Shown in pieces: positions 46,803-58,253 of a stretch of 64,000 nucleotides of DNA. This DNA is from Haloarchaeobius iranensis (GTDB taxonomy: Archaea > Halobacteriota > Halobacteria > Halobacteriales > Natrialbaceae): assembly GCF_900103505.1 (NCBI RefSeq), contig NZ_FNIA01000004.1, positions 62,001 to 126,000 on the forward strand, written 5' to 3'. Below the pieces are notes generated by a model. It searched no databases. It worked only from the letters and a program-made list of their open reading frames with translations, and was not told where the DNA came from. Each line of letters starts with the position of its first letter. Position 1 is the first letter of the stretch. Both the position numbers and the translations under genes were made by a program.

Positions 46803-47227
46803 CTCGCCTCGCGCTGCCCCTCGACCGTGTCCCGGAGGTCCTGCACTCGCTCCCTGACGGCCGCGACGACGTCGCCCATCTCGGCCCCGCCCTCGTCGCG
46901 CTCCTCGTCGGGGTGGCCGAAGTAGTACGGCTTCGCCGGCGCCAGCTCCTCGACGAGCTTTTCGTTCACCACCGCGCCGACGACGACCGCCGGGAACAGC
47001 AGCCAGCTCGGCAAGAGCACGACGAGCAGTACGGTCAACGGGGCGTAGGCGAAGTACGCCAGCAGCGTGAACTCGGGCCGGTTGACGACGGTGTTCTCCG
47101 CGTAGGCCCAGACGCCGAACAGCACGAGAAGCAGCCCCAGGTCGAGGGACAGCCCGGTCCAGATGGAGGACTCGCCGGAGACGAGCACGTGGACGAACAC
47201 CGCCATCGCCCCGGTGAACGGGGTCAC
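46799..47227 (-). CDS. Membrane protein, probably truncated by an in-frame stop
   Basis: From the GTG at 47227 the product is 142 residues: helices MTPFTGAMAVFVHVLV, LDLGLLLVLFGVWAYAE and LLAYFAYAPLTVLLVVLLPSWLLFPAVVVGAVV, then an acidic cytoplasmic tail. In the same frame upstream lies a TAG at 47302-47300 and, beyond it, SATIPLVVAENRPW; between stop and GTG the frame reads LDVPLAQLLLLLGGIAIERTYVNR. This looks like one membrane protein whose reading is broken at the TAG. The remaining gene may still be translated from 47227, or is a remnant. Function unknown. It borders the AT-rich start of the type IV secretion locus. Confidence 0.55.
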   Translation of the reverse strand: MTPFTGAMAVFVHVLVSGESSIWTGLSLDLGLLLVLFGVWAYAENTVVNRPEFTLLAYFAYAPLTVLLVVLLPSWLLFPAVVVGAVVNEKLVEELAPAKPYYFGHPDEERDEGGAEMGDVVAAVRERVQDLRDTVEGQREAS

Positions 47228-47497
47228 ACGGTTGACGTACGTCCTCTCGATGGCGATGCCACCCAGCAGTAACAGGAGCTGTGCGAGGGGGACATCGAGC
47301 TACCAGGGACGGTTCTCGGCGACGACGAGCGGTATCGTAGCGCTGAGTAGCCCGGGTGTAACTCGTCCGTCCCTGGGCCGAACCCGATATCAAGATTTCT
47401 GCCGAGCAGAGACGTTTCAGGCCCTATGCAAATGTATTTTACAACTTTGGCTTTTGCTAAACCCTGCCGAGTAGTTAAAAGCAAATGCTGAAAGTTA

Positions 47498-47517
47498 ATT
47501 TTATATGTATTCGAATA
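47498..47517 (+). promoter_or_regulatory. Promoter and palindrome of the T4SS-like operon
   Basis: AATTTTATATG at about 47497-47507 is a TATA box in a markedly AT-rich stretch (47400-47530), and TATTCGAATA, a perfect 10-bp palindrome, follows at 47508-47517 just before the expected start of transcription near 47530. A dimeric repressor at this palindrome could silence the operon; the first gene encodes a ribbon-helix-helix-like protein that could be that repressor. Confidence 0.55.
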
Positions 47518-47574
47518 TCGAAACTAAGTGAGGATGTATCGGGAGCCAGACGACACCAACGACCGGCACTCAGC

Positions 47575-47832
47575 ATGAAGTCGACCACAGTCACCGTAGA
47601 GAAGATGGACGTCCTGTTCCTGAAGTGGAACTCCCACATCAACGCCTCCGGGCTGTACAGACAGGCGATCCGGGAGGTCATGCAGGACCACGGCATCGAA
47701 CCCCACGAGCTACGGCAGCTGGTCGACCAGGCCGAGGACGCCGGTCTCGAACTCGACGACCTCGTCGAGCAGACGGACCGACCGAGCGACCTCGAGTCGC
47801 TCGTAGAGAACGACATTCACTCCGAACAATGA
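47575..47832 (+). CDS. Small ribbon-helix-helix-like protein, first gene of T4SS-like operon
   Basis: An 85-residue protein, MKSTTVTVEKMDVLFLKWNS followed by HINASGLYRQAIREVMQDHG. A short strand followed by a helix with NASGLYRQAI is the pattern of a ribbon-helix-helix (CopG-like) DNA-binding fold. The second half is an acidic helical region (ELRQLVDQAEDAGLELDDLVEQ). The frame opens at 47485, but the ATG at 47575 fits better. Its stop overlaps the next ATG (ATGA), so it is coupled to the pilin-like gene. By analogy with small plasmid operon repressors it may control the operon through the palindrome at 47508, which is inference. Confidence 0.72.
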   Translation: MKSTTVTVEKMDVLFLKWNSHINASGLYRQAIREVMQDHGIEPHELRQLVDQAEDAGLELDDLVEQTDRPSDLESLVENDIHSEQ

Positions 47833-48266
47833 CAGACACCAACGACTCCGACGACAGCAGCAATGGATGGTTCACCGCACGAAGAGCGTTTCTGGCCCTG
47901 TTCACGCTCTCCGTGCTGAGCATGGTCGCAGTGCAGCCGGTGATGGCACAGTCAGACAGCGTCGTGTGTGAAGCGCCCAGTTCGAGCGGTGGGACCTGGA
48001 CTACGACCGGACTCGGCGACCTCGTCGAGCGGTTCTTCCAGATCACCACGCTGGTCGGCCTCATCGGCATGTTCGCCATCTGGCAGGGTGGCTCGCTCGC
48101 CGAGATCCTGACCTTGAGCCAGCGCCAGAAGCGCAACATAAAGGAGTACAAGAGCAGCTCGCTGAAGGCGGCCATCACGCTGGTCCTCATCGGGCCGATA
48201 TTCACCGTCGTCGGGAGCAGCTTCATCGGCAGCAAGATGAGCTGCCTCGACCTGACCTCCCTGTAG
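47829..48266 (+). CDS. VirB2/TrbC-like pilin candidate with Tat-like signal
   Basis: A 145-residue protein. The N-terminus has ARRAFLAL followed by a hydrophobic stretch ending VQPVMA-QS, a Tat-type signal peptide. The mature part has two membrane helices (VERFFQITTLVGLIGMFAIWQGG and LKAAITLVLIGPIFTVVGSSF) joined by a basic loop, LSQRQKRNIKEYKSSS, and two cysteines (VVCEAP, MSCLDL) that could form a disulfide. Signal, size and helix-basic loop-helix order match VirB2/TrbC-type pilins, including the small CedA1/TedC-type proteins of archaeal DNA-import pili. Sequence identity is too low to prove this by eye; the place between regulator and VirB6/VirB4 genes supports it. Confidence 0.65.
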   Translation: MTDTNDSDDSSNGWFTARRAFLALFTLSVLSMVAVQPVMAQSDSVVCEAPSSSGGTWTTTGLGDLVERFFQITTLVGLIGMFAIWQGGSLAEILTLSQRQKRNIKEYKSSSLKAAITLVLIGPIFTVVGSSFIGSKMSCLDLTSL

Positions 48267-48284
48267 TCGACGGGACCCAGAACG

Positions 48285-50279
48285 ATGAACCGGTCCCTCT
48301 TCGCGATGGCTGTCGCCGCACTCCTACTGGCGAGTTCGGTCCAGGGGGCCGGCCTGCTTGCCCCGTCTCCGGCCGACGCTGACGATGTGGCAGCGACCGC
48401 CGACGACGTACCGCCCGACCCCGAAGCACAGTACGGGCTCTCCCGGCAGACGGTCGCGCTGATGTGGTCCCACGACGTGGACGACCCCGCGGACCCCTCG
48501 GGGAGCGAGTCGTTCCTCCAGTTGGCGAACGCGACCGACGTTTCGTACAAGGAGCCGCCCGCGGCGGCCTCGGTCTGGTCCGAGAACGACCACCTCGACC
48601 TCACCCGGTCGTACGACCTGCAGGACCGGAACCGGTCGGTGGTTCCGCCCGACGCGGCCAGTGCTCGCGACTTCCAGAGCACCTTCAGCTTCAGCGACGG
48701 CACCCAGGGTGGACTGAACGACCACTGGGGCGACGGCGTCGCCTCGGCGGTCGTCCTGCGCGACGCCCATTCCACGATTTTCGGGGTCCACCCCTCGACC
48801 ATCGGCCACGTCTCGCCCGACGAGCGCCACCACTACGTCCGGCCGAACGGTAGCATCCGCTCGCTCGTCGACTACCGGGTGGTCGTCCCCGAAGGCCAGG
48901 ACCAGAGCCTCGCACCCGGGTACTCCGACGACACCGCCGTCGACATCGAGTGGGAGTTCGTCGAGAGCGAGATCGTCGACGTGACGCTGCTCCGCGACGG
49001 CGTCGAGGTCGACCCCTCGAACGACAACGGCGACTACGACGCCGACACGAACGAGGACGGCCACCTCACCGTCTACGAGTACCAGGAGTTCTACGGCCGC
49101 GACACGTCTCTGGTCGTCCGCGCGACGATCAACGTCACGCTGGAGCGGTCGGTCACGACCCGGCAGCGGGACTGTACGTACTACACCCCGAACAACTCGA
49201 CCAACTTCTGGGACTGCGACATCGACACGACGTCGCGGTCGGAGGCGGTGACTATCAGTCATCGGCCGGAGTCCGACCCGATGGCCGTCCGTATCTACAA
49301 CCTGAAGGCGTACCCGTACTACGCGGAGTACCCCGGTCGGGACAGCGGCGTCGTCGTCTTCCAGTCCCGTCCGTGGCAGGGGCTCAGCTTCGACGGGACG
49401 CCGGTCGAAGTGACCGGCAACTGGCGGTTCTACACCGGCAGGGACACCGACTGGGACACGGTACAGGTCCGGTCACGCACGGGAAGCGACACGCGGACGT
49501 CGGTGGCTCTGCCCTCGTACGTCCACGCGTTCCCGTCGGCGACCGGGGCGACGCTCGAGCCGAGCGGCAACCAGTCCGAGATACTCGACGTCTGGGGGTC
49601 GACGTTCGACTCCCCGGCCTCGAACGTCGCGAGCACCAACGTCAACGTGGACATCGCCCAGGACAGCTACGAACCGTCCTACGGCGTGGCCATCCGTGCG
49701 GACGACATCTCGCGCGACAGGCTCCGCGTCCACGGCATCGTCCGCGGCGAGGAGGCCTACCTGGTCAACCTCTCGAACGTGGACGCCTCCGTGCTCGGCG
49801 ACGACGTGGACATCGTCCGCGACGTGAACCGGAGCAACGTCACGGTCGAGGTCGTCCCCGGCCGCTCGAACGACTCCCACACGACACTACATATCGAACT
49901 CATGGACAACCAGACGGGTGACCCGATCGACCTCCGCGAACAGGCACCGGACCCGCTGCGTGGCCCCAGCGTGCAGAACCGCTCGGGCTACCTGGCGGTG
50001 AACGGCGAACGCGTCCGTATGGACGAACCCGGCGTCGCGAACGTGACGCTGAACCGGACCGGTCGGTTCAACGTCCGCTACGAGCCCGGGTCCTGGCTCC
50101 GTGCCGACCCGGCCTACACCGGCGACTCGGCGGTGGTGAAACACCGCTCGATCGACACGCTCGGTGAGCTGGTCGACTACGTGACCCAGGTCCTGCTGTA
50201 CGGCCTGCCGCTCCTGCTGGTGCTGTTCGTGGCGAAGAACGTGTTGCGCAAGTTCGGCCGGACACGGGGGCGCCGATGA
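48285..50279 (+). CDS. Large surface protein with EF-hand and C-terminal membrane anchor
   Basis: A 664-residue protein. MNRSLFAMAVAALLLASSVQGAG is a signal peptide; the C-terminal LVDYVTQVLLYGLPLLLVLFVAKNVLRKFGR is a membrane helix with a basic tail, so about 610 residues face outside. At least a dozen N-glycosylation sequons (NRS, NVT, NNS, NQT and others) are scattered through it. Residues 254-265, DTNEDGHLTVYE, match a canonical EF-hand calcium loop (D-x-N-x-D-G-x-L-x-x-x-E). The rest is beta-rich with no known domain. Coupled to the VirB6-like gene by an ATGA overlap, it is probably the exported, surface-exposed part of the apparatus, replacing the bacterial outer-membrane components that archaea lack. 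Confidence 0.82.
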   Translation: MNRSLFAMAVAALLLASSVQGAGLLAPSPADADDVAATADDVPPDPEAQYGLSRQTVALMWSHDVDDPADPSGSESFLQLANATDVSYKEPPAAASVWSENDHLDLTRSYDLQDRNRSVVPPDAASARDFQSTFSFSDGTQGGLNDHWGDGVASAVVLRDAHSTIFGVHPSTIGHVSPDERHHYVRPNGSIRSLVDYRVVVPEGQDQSLAPGYSDDTAVDIEWEFVESEIVDVTLLRDGVEVDPSNDNGDYDADTNEDGHLTVYEYQEFYGRDTSLVVRATINVTLERSVTTRQRDCTYYTPNNSTNFWDCDIDTTSRSEAVTISHRPESDPMAVRIYNLKAYPYYAEYPGRDSGVVVFQSRPWQGLSFDGTPVEVTGNWRFYTGRDTDWDTVQVRSRTGSDTRTSVALPSYVHAFPSATGATLEPSGNQSEILDVWGSTFDSPASNVASTNVNVDIAQDSYEPSYGVAIRADDISRDRLRVHGIVRGEEAYLVNLSNVDASVLGDDVDIVRDVNRSNVTVEVVPGRSNDSHTTLHIELMDNQTGDPIDLREQAPDPLRGPSVQNRSGYLAVNGERVRMDEPGVANVTLNRTGRFNVRYEPGSWLRADPAYTGDSAVVKHRSIDTLGELVDYVTQVLLYGLPLLLVLFVAKNVLRKFGRTRGRR

Positions 50280-51463
50280 GCCGGCTCCCGGCCGGTCCGA
50301 CATCGGTGTTCGACCGACTCCTGGTCCTCCAGGACCTCAGCGACTACGGCCTCCAGTGGTTCCGCGACATCGTCGCGTGGCTCATCAACTGGCTGCGCAT
50401 CGCGACCATCCAGGCGTTCGACGATTTCAGCGCCGTGAGCGGGAGCCTCCACCAGGGCGGTGGGAACCCGTCGCTGCTCGGCACACCAGTTCCGAGCACC
50501 GCGTACAACCCGGGCGTGATATTCCAGGACCCGGGCGGGTCGAACCAGATCTTCGGCCGGATATACGACGCGACGACCCTCGGCGGGAGTTCGCCGGAGA
50601 TGCTCGTCTTCGGTATCGTCCTGCTGGTCGTCTGTGTGCAGGGCCACACGGTGGCGAAGGTGTTCAACTACGGGAACACGAAGCTCGCCCGCCGGACGCG
50701 GAAGTCGGCGTGGGTCGGCTTCTTCGCCATCGTGACGTGGTACTGGCTCGGTGTGCTGGTGCTCTACCTCGCGCAGGGGTTCACAACGGTGCTCATCCCA
50801 GACCTCACGGTCAACGGCGGGTCGTACAACACGATACTCGACTACATGGCCGAGTACGTGAACGTGGTCATCAACTCGAACGACATCCAGCAGCCCGGTA
50901 CGGGGTCGGTCGGCGGCGCGACGGGCGTGAACGTACTCAGGAATCCCGTCTTCCTGCTGCCGCTGTACGCCGTCGGCGCGCTGGCGGCCTTCGCGGTGCG
51001 GACCATCTTCATGCTCCGCTGGCTGGTGCTGTACGTCTACCTGTACGCGATGCCCATCGGCATCGCCCTGCTGTTCGGGAACGTGCCGTACGTCTCGACC
51101 GTCGCCAAGCGGTTCGTGAAGCACTTCTTCACCTGGGTGCTCCTGCCCCTGCCCGCCGGTGCGCTGTTGATGGTGTACGACGTCCTGTTCAACGACCTCC
51201 AGCTGCTCGGACAGGTGTCCGGGTCGCCGTCGACCGTCCAGTTCCTCGTCGGCATCACCTTCCCGGTGCTCCTGTTGTGGGTCACCTGGAAGACCTTCGC
51301 GTACGCGGAGCCCATCCAGCAACGGGTCGAGGCCGGCGCGGTCGAGGTCGCCTCCCACGTCAGCGCGGAGGTGACCGGCACCGGTGCGACACAGCGGGTT
51401 ATCGAGCGCAACGTGGAGACCGAGTCGTATCGACGAACGAACGACGACGCGAGTGGTGACTGA
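50276..51463 (+). CDS. VirB6/CedA-like polytopic membrane protein
   Basis: A 395-residue protein with about six to seven membrane helices: MLVFGIVLLVVCVQGHTVAK, WVGFFAIVTWYWLGVLVLYLA, NPVFLLPLYAVGALAAFAVR, LVLYVYLYAMPIGIALLFG, FTWVLLPLPAGALLMVYDVL and VQFLVGITFPVLLLWVTWKTF. The N-terminal amphipathic WFRDIVAWLINWLRIATIQAF and a C-terminal cytoplasmic tail fit VirB6 or the CedA protein of archaeal DNA import. It should form the inner-membrane channel. Overlaps the surface-protein gene at ATGA and lies 2 bases before the next gene, which encodes a VirB4-like N-terminal domain. Identity is inferred from topology and neighbours rather than a motif. Confidence 0.75.
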   Translation: MSRLPAGPTSVFDRLLVLQDLSDYGLQWFRDIVAWLINWLRIATIQAFDDFSAVSGSLHQGGGNPSLLGTPVPSTAYNPGVIFQDPGGSNQIFGRIYDATTLGGSSPEMLVFGIVLLVVCVQGHTVAKVFNYGNTKLARRTRKSAWVGFFAIVTWYWLGVLVLYLAQGFTTVLIPDLTVNGGSYNTILDYMAEYVNVVINSNDIQQPGTGSVGGATGVNVLRNPVFLLPLYAVGALAAFAVRTIFMLRWLVLYVYLYAMPIGIALLFGNVPYVSTVAKRFVKHFFTWVLLPLPAGALLMVYDVLFNDLQLLGQVSGSPSTVQFLVGITFPVLLLWVTWKTFAYAEPIQQRVEAGAVEVASHVSAEVTGTGATQRVIERNVETESYRRTNDDASGD

Positions 51464-51465
51464 AG

Positions 51466-52584
51466 ATGTCGACCGAAGACAAATCCAACCGACGGATCAT
51501 GGATCAGTTCGGCGAGGAGAGCCGCATCCCCTACCTCAACATCTCCGAGGGCGACGTGGGCGTGGTGGTGGTCGTCCCCATCCTCGCGATGCTCGTCGTC
51601 GCGATGACGGTAGACGCGTTCATCCTGCCGACGCTGGTCCTGAGCTTCCTCCTGATGCTCGGCGTGGTGTACGTCACGCCGTCACACCTGACGGCCCCGG
51701 CGTATCTGGGCGCCGTCTACCGACATCTGAAGCGGCCGAACTGGACCTACAGCGTCCCGTACTACGAAACGATGACAGAGACATCGACGGACACGACAGC
51801 GAACGAGGGCGGTCTGTTGAACTACACCCCGTTCAAACCGGACGAACGGACGCAGGACCTGACGAACATCGAGCGAGCCTGGCCGGGTGCTGGTGCGATA
51901 CAGCGTCGGGACGGCGTCATGGAGGCGTACGTGCAGGTCGAGCCCGGCAACATGGACTTCGCGATGGCGGACGACTGGGCGGCCATCCAGGAGGCATGTT
52001 CCGAGTTCGCGAACAAGGAGCTCGACTTCCAGCTCAAGTTCCACGCGACGACGAGCACCTACCCCGTCGAGAAGCTGGTCGAACGGCTCAACCAGCGGAT
52101 GCTCGACGACGACGTCCAGAACAACCCCATCTTCGCGGAGCTGCTCGACGAGTACCGCGAGCGCCGGCCCAGCCAGATGCGGGCACGCGGGGCACAGGAA
52201 CTCCAGTTCTACATCGGGGTCCGGGTCGACGAGTTCGAGATCAAGAACCGCTACGAGCACGAGCCGACACCGCTGGAGAAGCTCTCGAACATCCCCCTGT
52301 TGGGCATCCTGTTCTCGCCGTTCGTGGGGCGCCATCAGGACCGCACGGAGGCGGAACGCCACATGGCGATGTTCGACCGGCTGGACGACCGGCTCGCGAC
52401 CATCGAGGGTGAGCTGGTCCAGAACATCAACGGCTGGGACTCCCGCCGACTGAGCACCGTCGAGCTGTTCGGTCTCTGCCTCGACTTCTGGAACGGCGAG
52501 GAGCACGACTTCGGGACGGCCTCGGAGTCACTGACGGCCAGCCCGGCCATCGGACGGACGGAACGGGGTGAGGTGGATGACTGA
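51466..52584 (+). CDS. VirB3-like plus VirB4 N-domain protein, no ATPase domain
   Basis: A 372-residue protein. Residues about 28-70 hold two adjacent membrane helices (VGVVVVVPILAMLVVAMTVDA and LVLSFLLMLGVVYVTPSH), like VirB3/TrbD/PrgI. The soluble remainder (LTNIERAWPGAGAIQRRDGVMEAYVQVEPGNMDF; TSTYPVEKLVERLNQRM; ELQFYIGVRVDEFEIKN) resembles the N-terminal docking domain of VirB4/TraC ATPases, but no P-loop follows. VirB3-VirB4 fusions are known, so here the fusion seems split from the ATPase, which is encoded by the next gene with its own N-terminal domain. Its stop overlaps the next ATG by 8 bases. Confidence 0.72.
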   Translation: MSTEDKSNRRIMDQFGEESRIPYLNISEGDVGVVVVVPILAMLVVAMTVDAFILPTLVLSFLLMLGVVYVTPSHLTAPAYLGAVYRHLKRPNWTYSVPYYETMTETSTDTTANEGGLLNYTPFKPDERTQDLTNIERAWPGAGAIQRRDGVMEAYVQVEPGNMDFAMADDWAAIQEACSEFANKELDFQLKFHATTSTYPVEKLVERLNQRMLDDDVQNNPIFAELLDEYRERRPSQMRARGAQELQFYIGVRVDEFEIKNRYEHEPTPLEKLSNIPLLGILFSPFVGRHQDRTEAERHMAMFDRLDDRLATIEGELVQNINGWDSRRLSTVELFGLCLDFWNGEEHDFGTASESLTASPAIGRTERGEVDD

Positions 52585-54955
52585 GTTCGTCGCGGCGGGC
52601 GGGGCACTGCTGCTCGCCGGGAGCACACTCGCCCTGGGGCTGTTCGGGAACTCGCAGGAGGCCGAGGAGCCGCCCGAAGCGGCGGACGAGACGGCGGCTG
52701 AGCGGTCCGGTTCTGAGACGGTCGACGACGAACTCGGGGACGAAGAGCCGCCGGCGGACGATGACCGCGAGGACGACGCCCCGGAGGCGGTCCCCGAGGA
52801 TGCGGAGTGGTCGGTCGACGGCGACGACGACGCGCTCGACGCGGACGGGCTCGACACCGAGGAGCTCGCCGGCGAGACCGAGGCGGACGGCGGGGGGCTG
52901 CTCTCGAAGCTCAACCCGCTGCACTGGTTCGGCGACGACGAACCCGAGGTCGAGATGCACGAACTGATGGACGAGGAGATGGAGGCAGCGGCCGTCGAGG
53001 GATGGGCCGCCATCGACGAGGTCCACGACATGCAGGCCGACGCGGTCGCCCCCGCGGCCATCGAGTGGGAGACGCGTGCGGCCCGCGTGGGCGAGCAGTG
53101 GACGACGACGCTGTACATCTCGGACTACCCTGACTACCCCTCCGACGGCTACCTCTCGAAGGTGTTCCAGACGACGGACGTGGAGTTCGACCTCACCGTC
53201 CACCTCCGGCCGAAGAACCAGGAGGCGGCCCGCGACGAGCTGCGGAACGTGGCCGACGAGCTACAGGTCGACGCCGACCTCGAGGAGAGCGTCCGCGGCA
53301 ACTACCTGCAGGAGCGCGCGAACGAGGCCGCATCGACGTACAAGGCGGTCGAGAGCGGCACCCGCGTCTTCGACCAGGGGATGTACCTGACGGTCCGCGC
53401 GGAGAACCGCGAGGAGCTCGAGGAGGCCACCAGGAAGATGCGGTCGCGGCTCCGCGACGACCCCGCGAACCTCACGCCGAAGACCGCCATCTGCAAGCAG
53501 GACCTCGCGCTCCAGTCAGCCGCCCCGGTCGGCTACAACGAGTTCGGCCGCGAGTCCATCGCGCTCGGCGGCGCGGTCGGTGCGATGTTCGCTTCGATGA
53601 ACGAGGCGTCGATCCTCGAGGAGGGCGGTGTCGAGTTCGGACTCCACAAGGACACCGACAGCCCGGTGGTCGTGGACCCCTTCCAGCGGGACAACGGCTA
53701 CTCGATGTTCACCGTCGGCGACGTGGGCTCCGGGAAGTCGTTCGGGGCGAAGCAGAACTTCGTCCGGTCCATCGAGCAGAGCGAGGACCGGATGGGTATC
53801 ATCCTGGAGCCGCTCGGCAACTGGTCGGGTGTCGCCGAGGCGCTGGGCGCACAGCGGATCACGGTCGGTGGCACCCTCGGGCTGAACCCGCTCGAGATCA
53901 AGCCCACGCCCGAGCACGTCCGGGAGACGATGGGGCAGGACGCGAGCCCGTTCAAGGAGAAGAAGGACGACGCGATGAGCTTCCTCGTGAACTACTTCGA
54001 GCTCCGGAACGTGGAACTCGGCGACCGACGGACCACGCTGGAAGCCGCGCTCGACCACGCCTACGAACGGAACGGCATCACCGATGACGTCTCCACGCAC
54101 GGCCGTGACAGTCCGACCATCCGCACGGTCATGGATGTCCTCGAGGACATGGTGAACGATCCCGAGGAGTACGTCGTCAGGACGCCCGAGGAGACAGAGA
54201 AGATCACGAACGACGCGAAGTGGCTCATCGACCAGCTCCGGCCGTTCGAGGAGGGTGGCCGCTACGCGAACCTGGGCAAGCCGACGGAGTTCGACTTCCG
54301 TGACCAGAAGGTCGTCTACCTCGACCTCGCCCAGCAGGAGGGGAGCGTCGGCGGCGCGACGAGCCTGCTGATGCAGCTGCTCATCTCGCTGGTGTACGAG
54401 CGCGCCAAGGAGACGGAGAAGGAGGTCGTGTTCTCCATCGACGAGGCGCGGTACATCATGCAGGACGCGGCGAACCTGGAGTACCTGGAGACCGTGTTCC
54501 GCCACCACCGCCACCACGACCTCTCTATCAGGCTCATCACCCAGACCGTCGACGAGTTCTTCCAGCACCACGAGAGCGAGGCCATCCTGGACCAGATCGC
54601 CATCAAGCAGTTCCACCGGCTCGACGGGATGGACGAGAAGTGGGCCGACGAGTTCGAGCTGAACCACGCCCAGATGCGGTTCGTCCAGAACGCCGTCCCC
54701 GGCAACGAGGAGACCGGGTTCTCGGAGGCGCTGCTGGGTGTCGACGGCGAGTGGCGTGGCATCGAGATCCACGCGATGCCGAAGGAGACGGCGGTCATCG
54801 ACTTCGAACCCGCGAACGAGGACCGCGGGTCCCTCCCCGGAGCCGGCGCGTCCGCGGCGGAGCGCGAGGCCGAGGCGGTGGAGGAGAAGCTGTCCGAGCG
54901 CGTCGATGAGCGGTCGGGGTCCGCGTTCGAGTTCGGCGGGACGGCCCCGGAGTAG
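52577..54955 (+). CDS. VirB4/TraC-like conjugation ATPase
   Basis: A 792-residue protein. It starts with a membrane helix (FVAAGGALLLAGSTLALGLFG), then an acidic linker of about 90 residues, a VirB4 N-domain (TRAARVGEQWTTTLYISDYP; LTVHLRPKNQEAARDELR; LTVRAENREELEEATRKM), and a P-loop ATPase. Walker A is GDVGSGKS at 381-388, Walker B VVFSIDEA at 617-624, and RHHRHHDLSIRLITQTVDEF at about 642-661 follows as the sensor/Gln motif region. Such ATPases power pilus assembly and DNA transfer. I chose the ATG at 52577 rather than GTG 52568; both overlap the previous gene. It is the last gene of the tight operon. Confidence 0.92.
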   Translation: MTEFVAAGGALLLAGSTLALGLFGNSQEAEEPPEAADETAAERSGSETVDDELGDEEPPADDDREDDAPEAVPEDAEWSVDGDDDALDADGLDTEELAGETEADGGGLLSKLNPLHWFGDDEPEVEMHELMDEEMEAAAVEGWAAIDEVHDMQADAVAPAAIEWETRAARVGEQWTTTLYISDYPDYPSDGYLSKVFQTTDVEFDLTVHLRPKNQEAARDELRNVADELQVDADLEESVRGNYLQERANEAASTYKAVESGTRVFDQGMYLTVRAENREELEEATRKMRSRLRDDPANLTPKTAICKQDLALQSAAPVGYNEFGRESIALGGAVGAMFASMNEASILEEGGVEFGLHKDTDSPVVVDPFQRDNGYSMFTVGDVGSGKSFGAKQNFVRSIEQSEDRMGIILEPLGNWSGVAEALGAQRITVGGTLGLNPLEIKPTPEHVRETMGQDASPFKEKKDDAMSFLVNYFELRNVELGDRRTTLEAALDHAYERNGITDDVSTHGRDSPTIRTVMDVLEDMVNDPEEYVVRTPEETEKITNDAKWLIDQLRPFEEGGRYANLGKPTEFDFRDQKVVYLDLAQQEGSVGGATSLLMQLLISLVYERAKETEKEVVFSIDEARYIMQDAANLEYLETVFRHHRHHDLSIRLITQTVDEFFQHHESEAILDQIAIKQFHRLDGMDEKWADEFELNHAQMRFVQNAVPGNEETGFSEALLGVDGEWRGIEIHAMPKETAVIDFEPANEDRGSLPGAGASAAEREAEAVEEKLSERVDERSGSAFEFGGTAPE

Positions 54956-55191
54956 AAGCCCGTTTCTGTCACGCCGAGTTGCAGTCGCTCCGTCACGAAC
55001 AGTCGTTCGACTGCCGGTCCGCCGGTCGCCGAGCGTCACTGGAGCGATGCCGCCAGCGTGACAGGTCGAACTGTCTGACCGAGACCCTCGATAACCACCG
55101 GTTTGGGCCAGTACCGACGCCATAACCGGGTTACCTGTGTGAATAGATAACAGTATACTTTATAACCCCTGAGTCGTAACGGCAGGACAAC

Positions 55192-56472
55192 ATGAAGCGA
55201 CGGCACCTGCTCGGAGCCTGCGCTGGCGTGACCTCCCTCCTGGGGGGATGTGTCAGCAGGGTCCAGGTGCCGACGGAGGACGACCCCGCCAGACGCAGGA
55301 GCAATCCGGTCAACCGTGGTGACCTGGTTCGACCCCAGGACGACTCCCTCCGGCGGGTGTCGGACCTGCCCCTCGTCTCGCTGAAGCGAGCACCGGCACC
55401 GCCGGAGGGCGAACCACAGCCGGCCGAATCACCGTCGAACGGTGGCGAACTCACCGTGACGGACGAGTACTGGCGAAACCGCACCCACGTGACCGCCTAC
55501 AGCATCGACGGGGTGGAGGTCGAGGTGTACCCCGACCAGCCCGTCGGCGATTCCGACGTCGGAAAGCTGTACGTCGCGCTGATGGAGTACCCCCGCCAAC
55601 AGGTCATCGCCGAGGGGACCAGCGAGCGGTTCCAGCGCTCCCAGCGACGGCAGTCCATCACGGTCGATTTCGACCTGTCCACGGCACCACGGAACGAGCG
55701 CCTCCAGTACGTCGTCTTCCTGCTGCCCGGTGACGCGGATATCGACTCGGTCGACCCCGGTCGGACGGAGTTCGTCATGGAGACCGACCCGTTCGTCGTC
55801 TACTCCGGCGAGGAGCGCATCCGCCGGGCACCCACCGGTGAGGAACCCGGCGAGTCGACCGGGAGCCGCTACAGCCGGACGCCCATCGAGGGCGCGTACC
55901 TGCTGCGTATCGGCGGCCGGACCGCGGGGCGGGACTGGGACCTGAACCTCCTGGTGTTCAAATCCGCACACGAGGAGTCCTGGCGCCGGTCCCGCGGCCG
56001 TGCGAGGCACGAGTACGTCACCGTCGAGCTGGTCAACGGGGCCGCGAACGAACTCGCGACGCTCCTCTACGAGGAGGCCGGGTCCAACGGCGCGAACGGG
56101 GAGAACGCGAGGGTCGAGTTCGCGGTGGACGTCGTCCAGTCGCTCCCGTATGCGCCCGACAGTGTGACCGCCGGCTTCGACGACTACACCAAGTTCATCC
56201 TGGAGACGCTGGTGGACGGCGGGAACGACTGCGAGGACACCGCTATCCTACTCGCGTCGGTCCTCGAGGCGTCGGCGTTCAACAAGGACGCCGTGCTCAT
56301 CCAACCGCCCGGGCACATGGCCGTGGGTGTCTGGGGGCCGGAGCTCGAGGGCTACAAGTACCACCACGAGGGGCGGACGTACACCTACATCGAGACGACG
56401 AACCCCGGCTGGAGCATCGGCGACGCACCCGAGGCGTACCAGGGCGAGCGTGCCGAGATTCACCAGGTGTAG
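55192..56472 (+). CDS. Lipoprotein with transglutaminase-like domain
   Basis: A 426-residue secreted lipoprotein. MKRRHLLGACAGVTSLLGGC is a Tat-like lipoprotein signal with lipobox LGGC. The C-terminal 110 residues are transglutaminase-like: NDCEDTAILLASVLEAS (Cys), GHMAVGVW (His) and YTYIETTNPGW (acidic residue) form the Cys-His-Asp/Glu arrangement of papain-like transglutaminases and cysteine peptidases. The middle region is beta-rich. It has its own promoter (ACTTTATAAC at about 55155-55164), so it is not necessarily part of the T4SS operon, yet a surface peptidase or cross-linking enzyme would suit an envelope-spanning apparatus. Confidence 0.87.
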   Translation: MKRRHLLGACAGVTSLLGGCVSRVQVPTEDDPARRRSNPVNRGDLVRPQDDSLRRVSDLPLVSLKRAPAPPEGEPQPAESPSNGGELTVTDEYWRNRTHVTAYSIDGVEVEVYPDQPVGDSDVGKLYVALMEYPRQQVIAEGTSERFQRSQRRQSITVDFDLSTAPRNERLQYVVFLLPGDADIDSVDPGRTEFVMETDPFVVYSGEERIRRAPTGEEPGESTGSRYSRTPIEGAYLLRIGGRTAGRDWDLNLLVFKSAHEESWRRSRGRARHEYVTVELVNGAANELATLLYEEAGSNGANGENARVEFAVDVVQSLPYAPDSVTAGFDDYTKFILETLVDGGNDCEDTAILLASVLEASAFNKDAVLIQPPGHMAVGVWGPELEGYKYHHEGRTYTYIETTNPGWSIGDAPEAYQGERAEIHQV

Positions 56473-56537: not shown

Positions 56538-58253
56538 ATGAGCGAGACGAAAGAGATCGTACTTGGAGAGACGGTTGACGGGGCGGCCGTGGCGGTACCC
56601 GTCGTGGAACTGCTGACCGGACGCGGCTTCGTGACGGGCAAGTCGGGGTCCGGAAAGTCGAACTCGGCGAGCGTCATCGCCGAGGAACTGCTCGAGGCCG
56701 GCTTTCCCCTGCTCATCGTCGACACCGACGGGGAGTACTACGGGCTGAAGGAGGAGTACGAGCTGCTCCACGCCGGCGCCGACGAGGAGTGCGACATCCA
56801 GATCGCACCCGAGCACGCCGAGCGGATGGCGAACCTCGCCCTGGAGGAGAACGTCCCCATCATCCTCGACGTGTCCGGCTACCTCGACGAGGACGAGGCG
56901 AACGAGCTCATCCTCGAGACGGCGAAGCACCTGTTCGCGAAGGAGAAGAAGCTGAAGAAGCCGTTCCTGCTCGTCGTCGAGGAGGTCCACGAGTACATCC
57001 CGGAGGGCGGTGGGATGGACGAGACCGGGAAGATGCTCATCAAGATCGGCAAGCGCGGGCGCAAGCACGGGCTGGGCATCGTCGGCATCAGCCAGCGCCC
57101 GGCCGACGTGAAGAAGGACTTCATCACGCAGGCGAACTGGATGGTCTGGCACCGGCTCACCTGGGAGAACGACACCAATGTCGTCGGCCGCATCCTCGGC
57201 AGCGACTTCGAGGAGCGCGTGACCGACCTTGACGCGGGCCAGGCGTTCATGATGTCGGACTGGGCCGAGCAGGAGGTCCAGACGGTGCAGTTCCGGCGCA
57301 AGCGGACGTTCGACGCCGGCGCGACGCCCGGCCTGGAGGATTTCGAACGGCCCGAGCTGAAGTCGGTCAGCGACTCCCTGGTCGACGACTTAGAGGAGAT
57401 CAGCGAGGAGAAGTCCCGGCGCGAGAACCGCATCCTGGAACTCGAGGCCGAGGTGGAGAAGAAGGAACAGCGTATCGAGACCCTGGAGGAGGAGCTGGAG
57501 CGCGCGAAGGACATATCGAACGCCGCGAAACAGATGGCCGACGCCGTCGCGGGCAACAGCGGCATCGAGACGCCCGGCGAGCAGTCGACGCTCCCCACCG
57601 ACGGGGCCGACGACGACGCGACGGACGGCGTGAGCGAGGCGGGTGACGATGACCAGACGAACGCCGAGATAGAGGCCGAACGCAACGAGCTCCGTCGGCG
57701 AGTGCGAGAGCTGGAGGGCGAGGTCGACCGACTCGAATCGCGCAACGAGAGCCTGCGGGAGGAGGCCGAGTCGCTGCGGGCGGGTGATGTCGACGCCGAT
57801 GTCGTCCAGGACCAGCGCGACCGCATCGCGTTCCTCGAGACCGCCGTCGACCAGCTCCAGCGACGGCTCTCCGGCCGGGCCGACGACGGGACGACGAGTG
57901 ACGAGCTAGACGCCACCGCCGACGTGACCGCACTCGTGGAGACCGACCCCATCAGCGAGCGCATCGAGCGGGCCATCCGCGAGGCGGACTGCAACGAGCG
58001 CTACACCTGGGAGGTCGTCACGGTGCTCGGAGAGAAGGCCCCGCTGACGGTGGGCGACCTGTCGACGTTCGTCGACACGGGGAGCGACCGCATCCAGAGC
58101 GCGCTCACTGAGCTGCGTCGCGAGGGCGTCGTCGCCCGGGAGAAGTCGACCGGCGAGTATCGACTCGACGAGGCGTCTATCCGGTCGATGGTGGCGACAG
58201 CTCGCGAGCGCGAGGCGGTCGCGTCGCTGACGGGTCGGGAGGGACCGTCGTAA
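56538..58253 (+). CDS. HerA-like (DUF87) ATPase with coiled coils and C-terminal winged helix
   Basis: A 571-residue protein. The ATPase opens with GKSGSGKSNS (Walker A, 34-41), Walker B LLVVEEVHEY at about 144-153 and GKRGRKHGLGIVGISQRPADVKKDF, typical of HerA/FtsK-type motors. Residues about 275-335 and 375-450 are coiled coils, separated by an acidic linker. The C-terminal 80 residues form a winged helix (VVTVLGEKAPLTVGDLSTFV ... RREGVVAREKSTGEYRLDEA). Haloarchaea carry such proteins widely, so it may be a general DNA-handling motor. Next to a VirB4/VirB6 locus it could also be the coupling-type ATPase (VirD4 or CedB role), which is inference. Confidence 0.88.
   Translation: MSETKEIVLGETVDGAAVAVPVVELLTGRGFVTGKSGSGKSNSASVIAEELLEAGFPLLIVDTDGEYYGLKEEYELLHAGADEECDIQIAPEHAERMANLALEENVPIILDVSGYLDEDEANELILETAKHLFAKEKKLKKPFLLVVEEVHEYIPEGGGMDETGKMLIKIGKRGRKHGLGIVGISQRPADVKKDFITQANWMVWHRLTWENDTNVVGRILGSDFEERVTDLDAGQAFMMSDWAEQEVQTVQFRRKRTFDAGATPGLEDFERPELKSVSDSLVDDLEEISEEKSRRENRILELEAEVEKKEQRIETLEEELERAKDISNAAKQMADAVAGNSGIETPGEQSTLPTDGADDDATDGVSEAGDDDQTNAEIEAERNELRRRVRELEGEVDRLESRNESLREEAESLRAGDVDADVVQDQRDRIAFLETAVDQLQRRLSGRADDGTTSDELDATADVTALVETDPISERIERAIREADCNERYTWEVVTVLGEKAPLTVGDLSTFVDTGSDRIQSALTELRREGVVAREKSTGEYRLDEASIRSMVATAREREAVASLTGREGPS

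What the first reader, a model, noticed from the sequence alone, without database searches (positions are those of the whole stretch)
47575..54955. A compact type IV secretion-like operon in a haloarchaeal chromosome
Six coupled genes (ATGA overlaps or gaps of at most 18 bases) run: RHH-like regulator, Tat-signal two-helix VirB2-like pilin candidate, glycosylated-looking EF-hand surface protein, VirB6/CedA-like channel, VirB3-plus-VirB4-N-domain protein, VirB4 ATPase. Only the VirB4 ATPase is certain from motifs; the others are assigned by topology and order. The set resembles bacterial conjugation cores and the Ced/Ted DNA-import pili of other archaea, but with a large surface protein where bacteria have outer-membrane parts. 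I do not know of a studied haloarchaeal example. No relaxase, integrase, att site or tRNA is seen, and the flanks are ordinary chromosomal genes, so a domesticated DNA-exchange or secretion machine is as likely as a conjugative island.
Basis: partly seen in the sequence, partly recalled or inferred. Interest (0 to 1): 0.88.

Follow-up and report, generated by a model that had tools for sequence, protein, structure and literature searches.

The report
Chromosomal conjugation machine without coupling ATPase
Six neighbouring genes in a salt-loving archaeon encode the core of a DNA-transfer machine that many haloarchaeal plasmids carry, but this copy sits in the chromosome and has lost the motor that would normally feed plasmid DNA into it, a loss that has happened several times in haloarchaea.

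Summary
All six genes (47575-54955, +) are collinear homologues of an essentially unstudied gene cluster on roughly 100-kb haloarchaeal plasmids: A (small, RHH-like), B (VirB2-like), C (surface protein), D (lipoprotein), E (TrbL_3/VirB6), F (VirB3/VirB4 N-domain), G (VirB4), H (giant VirD4-like ATPase). The window keeps A, B, C, E, F and G, and lacks D and H. VirB6 passes Pfam PF19590 (E=3e-56). The F model matches R388 VirB4 residues 11-205 (Z 11.3). VirB2 is supported only below threshold. The Tat signal is not conserved; the EF-hand is window-specific.

It is not a young island. Three close congeners share the flanks and lost the operon by three different deletions, two leaving VirB4 scars. 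The VirB4 tree needs at least six changes in H presence. H-less loci are over-represented on chromosome-sized contigs, and their core genes stay under purifying selection.

Best reading: a chromosomally captured, reduced T4SS. DNA exchange is its likeliest role, but substrate and direction are inferred; repeated loss in the genus also fits a dispensable relic. A chromosomal VirB4/D4 locus was already proposed for Haloferax volcanii, hence a new variant of a known kind.

The parts
47575..47832 (+). Gene A: 85-aa acidic protein, RHH-like by pattern; conserved first gene of many plasmid clusters
   Evidence: 51% identical to the plasmid homologue, alignment A6; no Pfam match above its cut-off
47829..48266 (+). 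Gene B: 145-aa VirB2/TrbC-like pilin candidate: signal peptide with AxA-type site, two hydrophobic helices around a basic loop, two invariant cysteines (C47, C139)
   Evidence: alignments A2/A9; PF04956 sub-threshold in 19 of 35 relatives, absent in 10 reversed controls
48285..50279 (+). Gene C: 664-aa surface protein, N-terminal signal, 16 N-glycosylation sequons, EF-hand loop (254-265), Ig/macroglobulin-like domain (about 512-622), C-terminal membrane anchor (about 626-657)
   Evidence: 31-42% identity to plasmid homologues; features; model with confident C-terminal domain only
50276..51463 (+). Gene E: 395-aa polytopic VirB6/TrbL-like channel protein
   Evidence: PF19590 TrbL_3 3.2e-56, above gathering score; alignment A3
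51466..52584 (+). Gene F: 372-aa protein, VirB3-like two-helix membrane segment followed by VirB4 N-terminal domain fold
   Evidence: 48-56% identity to plasmid homologues; Foldseek top five hits are TrwK/VirB4; VIA Z 11.3 to TrwK 11-205
52568..54955 (+). Gene G: 795-aa VirB4 ATPase (second part of VirB4 N-domain plus ATPase; Walker A GSGKS, Walker B VVFSIDEAR intact)
54500..54955 (+). 3' part of VirB4 still present as a scar in congener G003 (and 54833-54955 in G001): evidence that the operon was ancestral at this site

Best explanation
This is a chromosomally captured, reduced member of the haloarchaeal plasmid type IV secretion system. Shown: the six genes are the conserved core, minus lipoprotein D and the VirD4-like coupling ATPase H; the locus is an old chromosomal resident; H-less derivatives arose several times; and their core genes stay under purifying selection. 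Inferred: B forms a short pilus or pore plug, C projects through the S-layer to contact another cell, E forms the membrane channel, F docks VirB4 at the membrane, and hexameric F+G VirB4 powers pilus assembly and/or translocation. Without a cis coupling ATPase or relaxase it lacks the usual means of selecting its own plasmid, so it most likely moves DNA between touching cells as Ced/Ted do. It may import DNA by VirB4 alone, or may borrow a VirD4-like ATPase in trans (two candidates exist elsewhere in the genome).
For: Collinear homology of all six genes with plasmid clusters. VirB6, VirB4 and VirB4-N assignments. H carries DUF87 plus weak TrwB/TraG coupling-protein matches. Flanks are syntenic in congeners, with three different deletion junctions and VirB4 scars. 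H lost repeatedly: 12 of 85 classifiable loci, at least six changes on supported branches. In one chromosomal locus (L107) H is cleanly absent: VirB4 is followed 6 bases later by the gene that follows H in relatives. dN/dS is mostly 0.06-0.2 in core genes within H-less clades, similar to H-bearing pairs. H-less loci are enriched on contigs over 1 Mb (6 of 12 against 2 of 73, Fisher p=5e-5). VirD4-like homologues of H elsewhere in the genome. Ced and Ted are established domesticated systems with VirB2, VirB4 and VirB6 homologues (PMC9905601).
Against: The operon has been lost at least three times within its own genus, so it is not essential there. No other genome in the family has a close copy (best surface-protein match 44%), so selection on the window's own full set cannot be measured; only the VirB4 tail could be (dN/dS 0.23). 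The link between H loss and chromosomal location is untestable after correcting for ancestry (about 2 informative pairs of 6). VirB2 and VirB3 identities rest on weak evidence. No VirB8 homologue was identified. Direction and substrate are not shown by any result here.
Confidence: 0.55

Rival explanations
1. Decaying relic: an old integrated conjugative plasmid or ICE lost H, D, relaxosome and replication genes and is now neutral, being deleted piecemeal across the genus.
For: Three independent deletions in close congeners and scrambled VirB4 pieces in G001; lower GC than the rest of the window (0.660 against 0.696); long branch on the VirB4 tree.
Against: All six frames intact with Walker motifs and tight gene coupling kept. 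The VirB4 tail shared with G003 shows dN/dS 0.23 at dS 0.43, so it was constrained for most of the divergence. Other H-less clades keep all their core genes under strong constraint.
Confidence: 0.25
2. Trans-acting transfer machine: the chromosomal core serves plasmids or mobile elements that bring their own VirD4-like ATPase, so it still exports plasmid DNA.
For: The genome holds VirD4-like homologues of H on other contigs (C58, C56; 35-37% identity to the C-terminal half of H) and a second VirB4/VirB6 set on C29. H-bearing clusters coexist with H-less loci in Haloferax denitrificans and Haloferax sulfurifontis (L112 with L170; L114 with L178).
Against: The trans ATPases are diverged and unlinked, and H and the core normally overlap as one gene run. 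No relaxase was found in the genome, although archaeal conjugative plasmids generally lack recognised ones (PMC12857230).
Confidence: 0.15
3. Contact-dependent protein secretion or adhesion device rather than a DNA machine.
For: T4SS lineages often switch from DNA to protein (established knowledge); there is a large sequon-rich Ig-like surface protein and no DNA-processing gene in the operon.
Against: No effector-like gene is linked; the flanking genes are shared with congeners without the operon. Relatives sit with primase and coupling ATPase genes on plasmids.
Confidence: 0.05

Closest known systems
Haloarchaeal plasmid 'VirB4 family type IV secretion' clusters (e.g. Halorubrum hochsteinianum NZ_CP098416.1, Haloferax lucentense pSVX82-3)
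   Same: Same genes A, B, C, E, F and G in the same order; VirB4 about 60-70% identical, F about 54%, surface protein about 40%, VirB6 about 35%
   Different: Plasmids also have lipoprotein D, giant coupling ATPase H and often primase genes I/J; the window is chromosomal and has none of these
Ced and Ted DNA-exchange systems of Sulfolobales and Thermoproteales (PMC9905601)
   Same: Chromosomal set of VirB2-like pilin, VirB6-like channel and VirB4-like ATPase without relaxase; VirB4 N-domain functions split over two proteins, as proposed for CedB/CedD (PMC11868833)
   Different: No sequence match of the window's VirB4 to CedB/CedD models among the NCBIfam hits; a large surface protein is present; function untested; derived from haloarchaeal plasmid relatives rather than shown to be Ced/Ted orthologues
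Haloferax volcanii chromosomal VirB4/D4 'possible DNA secretion system' (PMC2841640)
   Same: VirB4-type system in a haloarchaeal chromosome, proposed to move DNA
   Different: That 53-kb low-GC island has VirB4/D4 homologues and XerC/D recombinases; this is a compact six-gene operon with no VirD4 or recombinase. Whether the VirB4s are one family was not tested
Halolamina and other H-less loci found here (L129, L167, L098-L101, L107, L155, L170, L177, L178)
   Same: T4SS core without the coupling ATPase; core genes conserved
   Different: All of these keep lipoprotein D; the window lacks D too, as does its nearest tree neighbour L180, which has H

Membership tests
[quoted passage not shown]
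   NF045971 9.2e-37, TraC 1.1e-17 (both under their curated cut-offs), PF03135 above cut-off, PDB 4AG5 3e-10; GSGKS and DEAR motifs invariant
[quoted passage not shown]
   PF19590 191 bits against cut-off 23
[quoted passage not shown]
   Hydrophobic stretch 24-76 (two helices) ahead of a VirB4 N-domain fold; PrgI and SCO6880 matches only sub-threshold in single relatives
[quoted passage not shown]
   PF04956 sub-threshold in 19 of 35 relatives, none in the window protein itself; 0 of 10 reversed sequences; no meaningful PDB sequence match
[quoted passage not shown]
   Homologue H follows VirB4 in plasmids but not in the window; distant homologues on other contigs only
[quoted passage not shown]
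   No Pfam match to VirB8 in any of the six; surface protein C has no Pfam match above cut-off
Integrative conjugative element | Integrase linked to the transfer genes | tested here: not met
   No PF00589 match on contig C36 at E<=0.001
Integrative conjugative element | Relaxase | tested here: not met
   No PF03432 match in the genome; other relaxase families not searched
Integrative conjugative element | att sites / discrete element boundaries with an empty site | not tested
   Junctions in congeners are deletions of different extent, not a common empty site; G002/G004 intergenic regions not examined for att
Ced/Ted domesticated DNA-exchange system | Chromosomal VirB2 + VirB4 + VirB6 set without mobile-element genes | tested here: met
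   Composition and synteny; VirB2 identity itself tentative
Ced/Ted domesticated DNA-exchange system | Orthology to CedA/CedB or TedA/TedB | tested here: inconclusive
   NCBIfam CedD model hits only the neighbour 56538-58253, not the operon's VirB4; profile comparison with CedA/TedA not run
Ced/Ted domesticated DNA-exchange system | Demonstrated cellular DNA transfer | not testable with these tools
   Needs genetics in a living strain

The most novel reading that the evidence does not exclude
Haloarchaea have repeatedly turned plasmid conjugation exporters into chromosomal, Ced-like DNA-exchange (possibly import) machines by deleting the coupling ATPase, and this operon is the most reduced example, running on pilin, channel, surface protein and a two-gene VirB4 alone.
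Probability: 0.25. Interest if true: 0.82.

Novelty: new variant of a known kind. Interest (0 to 1): 0.58.

Why it matters
How haloarchaea exchange chromosomal DNA is a long-standing open question. Beltran et al. [quoted passage not shown] A recurrent loss of the coupling ATPase from conserved chromosomal T4SS cores would give a natural series showing how an exporter is converted into a cellular DNA-exchange machine, in a group with good genetics (Haloferax). It also gives names and a parts list to a cluster whose products, apart from VirB4, are mostly annotated 'hypothetical protein' on dozens of haloarchaeal plasmids.

Tried and rejected
(1) Fusexin idea for surface protein C: Foldseek's top PDB rows were flavivirus E proteins (E 6e-4, TM-scores of only about 0.1). 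VIA-align did not list them among its best rows (complement/macroglobulin, Ig and FnIII, best Z 7.4), the viral library gave mixed Ig-like rows, the family profile hit nothing in PDB sequences, and PF10699 gave no hit above cut-off in 392 genomes. The model is poor (mean pLDDT 51), so the idea is not excluded, just unsupported. (2) Downstream lipoprotein and HerA-like gene as operon members: rejected, they stay in congeners without the operon. (3) Anti-phage system: PADLOC hits are only generic ATPase similarity (mad8, E 2e-8 for VirB4). (4) Young conjugative island: rejected by the shared ancestral position and scars. (5) PDB sequence searches with pilin, VirB6 and F profiles gave no meaningful hits. 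(6) Viral contigs: no homologue of F. (7) Chromosomal enrichment of H-less loci: significant only without correction for ancestry.

Full report
OBSERVATION. The six ORFs at 47575-54955 exist, are intact and are tightly coupled. Start 47575 for the first gene is right by alignment. No tRNA lies in the window, there is no PF00589 integrase match on the whole 254-kb contig, and no PF03432 relaxase match in the genome.

WHAT THE GENES ARE. tblastn against plasmid records shows the VirB4 at about 70-73% identity to haloarchaeal plasmid proteins annotated 'VirB4 family type IV secretion system protein' or 'transferase'. The VirB6-like and surface proteins have homologues annotated only 'hypothetical protein'. 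Annotated plasmids give a fixed order: A (82-92 aa), B (about 140), C (about 577), D (about 277, Tat-type lipoprotein by sequence), E (about 353), F (373), G (about 735, VirB4), H (about 1274-1460), then often a primase-like I and its partner J. H carries DUF87 and, in one relative, weak TrwB and TraG coupling-protein matches, so it is the likely VirD4-like coupling ATPase. The window has A, B, C, E, F and G in that order. It lacks D (C and E overlap by four bases), H, I and J.

ASSIGNMENTS. VirB4: NCBIfam VirB4-like models down to 9e-37, PF03135 above its cut-off, and PDB 4AG5 at 3e-10 with the family profile. VirB6: PF19590 TrbL_3, 3.2e-56. Gene F had no family match above threshold. Its AlphaFold2 model is weak (mean pLDDT 53), yet the five best Foldseek rows in the PDB are all from the R388 T4SS, TrwK/VirB4. 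VIA-align places residues 124-347 on TrwK 11-205 at Z 11.3, 181 residues, rmsd 5.7, with the next unrelated row at Z 7.0. With PF03135 matching the N-terminal part of gene G, F plus G look like one VirB4 split in two, preceded by a VirB3-like membrane hairpin. This resembles the CedB/CedD split described for Sulfolobales (PMC11868833). Gene B: PF04956 TrbC/VirB2 is the commonest family among relatives (19 of 35, best E 0.0038, below cut-off) and is absent from 10 reversed controls, although reversed sequences gave other chance hits as strong as 5e-4. I therefore call it probable, not shown. The twin-arginine motif occurs in only 5 of 88 homologues. All relatives keep two cysteines flanking the helices, which may staple the mature termini (inference). 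Gene C: N-terminal signal, 16 sequons, an EF-hand loop found only in the window protein, an Ig/macroglobulin-like domain at about 512-622, and a C-terminal anchor.

CHROMOSOMAL HISTORY. The locus is syntenic in congeners. G003 aligns to 47561 and resumes at 54500, keeping the upstream region and the last 151 codons of VirB4. G001 aligns to 47420 and from 54833, with a scrambled VirB4 fragment between. G005 joins 46993 to 55008 and has lost the N-terminal 62 residues of the upstream neighbour. These are three different deletions; the VirB4 scars in G003 and G001 show that the operon was already at this site in the common ancestor, and the truncated neighbour says the same of G005. G002 and G004, more distant, have the flanking genes without the operon. 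The VirB4 tail compared with G003 gives dN/dS 0.23 at dS 0.43, near the 0.09-0.20 of the neighbouring genes, so it was under constraint for most of that time. No other genome of the family holds a close copy (best surface-protein match 44%, 125 genomes).

THE WIDER PATTERN. VirB6 homologues occur in 128 of 392 genomes of the order. A scan of 84,980 species genomes returned 118 relatives of F, of which 80 were kept. Of 85 loci with enough sequence, 12 lack H, including the window. The VirB4 tree needs 7 changes in H presence, at least 6 on well supported branches (a quick tree, with long branches for several H-less rows including the window, so the window's own position next to L180 at support 87 is unsure). 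Among H-less loci, 6 lie on contigs over 1 Mb against 2 of 73 H-bearing ones (Fisher p=5e-5). After pairing for ancestry the test has too few informative pairs. In L107 the coupling gene is cleanly missing: VirB4 is followed after 6 bases by the gene that follows H in seven relatives. Within H-less clades (Halolamina L129/L132/L167; L098/L099) dN/dS is mostly 0.06-0.2 for C, E, F and G, as in H-bearing pairs, and up to about 0.45 for B and D. Most H-less loci keep D. The window lacks it, as does its nearest tree neighbour L180 (C-E gap of 3 bases), which has H; so D was probably lost before H in this line, if that join is right.

MECHANISM. Shown: composition, order, splitting of VirB4, chromosomal age, repeated loss of H with continued constraint on the core. 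Inferred: B is secreted, processed and polymerised from the membrane; E forms the channel; F and G form the VirB4 engine; C spans the S-layer and contacts the partner cell. Without H the machine lacks the usual gate that picks a plasmid, so I favour DNA exchange of the Ced/Ted kind (PMC9905601) or use of a VirD4-like ATPase in trans; two diverged candidates exist on contigs C58 and C56. A relic in decay is the main rival.

KNOWN VERSUS NEW. The kind is known: T4SS genes on archaeal plasmids, Ced/Ted domestication, and a proposed chromosomal VirB4/D4 DNA-secretion island in Haloferax volcanii (PMC2841640). What I did not find described in the papers searched is the full parts list of the haloarchaeal plasmid system and the recurrent H-less chromosomal form. 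Absence from an open-access library is not proof of novelty.

Noticed in passing
G000:C29:7434-11574 and G000:C66:154-1470 (same genome): A second, diverged T4SS set: VirB4 39% identical with a TrbL_3 protein beside it on C29, and a surface protein 38% identical on C66.
   Followed up: partly
L107 (G010:C1), VirB4 end to next gene: Precise loss of the coupling ATPase gene between VirB4 and the primase-like gene that follows it in seven relatives.
   Followed up: yes
L098 and L099 (G342:C1, two places about 410 kb apart): One chromosome carries two H-less T4SS operons, about 83% identical in DNA.
   Followed up: partly
Gene B family, residues C47 and C139 of the window protein: Two cysteines invariant in the pilin-like family flank the two helices and would both face outside, suggesting a disulfide that closes the pilin ends.
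   Followed up: no
L099 11745-12965: ORF right after VirB4 begins with an intein/Hint-like sequence (TERTQVLTTDGPIAAAGLEVGD).
   Followed up: no
window 56538-58253: HerA-like ATPase with a long coiled coil, conserved next to the Tat-type lipoprotein (55192-56472) in three close congeners (G001, G003, G005) that lost the operon.
   Followed up: partly
surface protein C (48285-50279), Foldseek: Flavivirus envelope proteins fill the top Foldseek rows for a low-confidence model; not upheld by VIA-align, but worth one good model because fusexins lie in haloarchaeal mobile elements with VirB4 (PMC9259645).
   Followed up: partly
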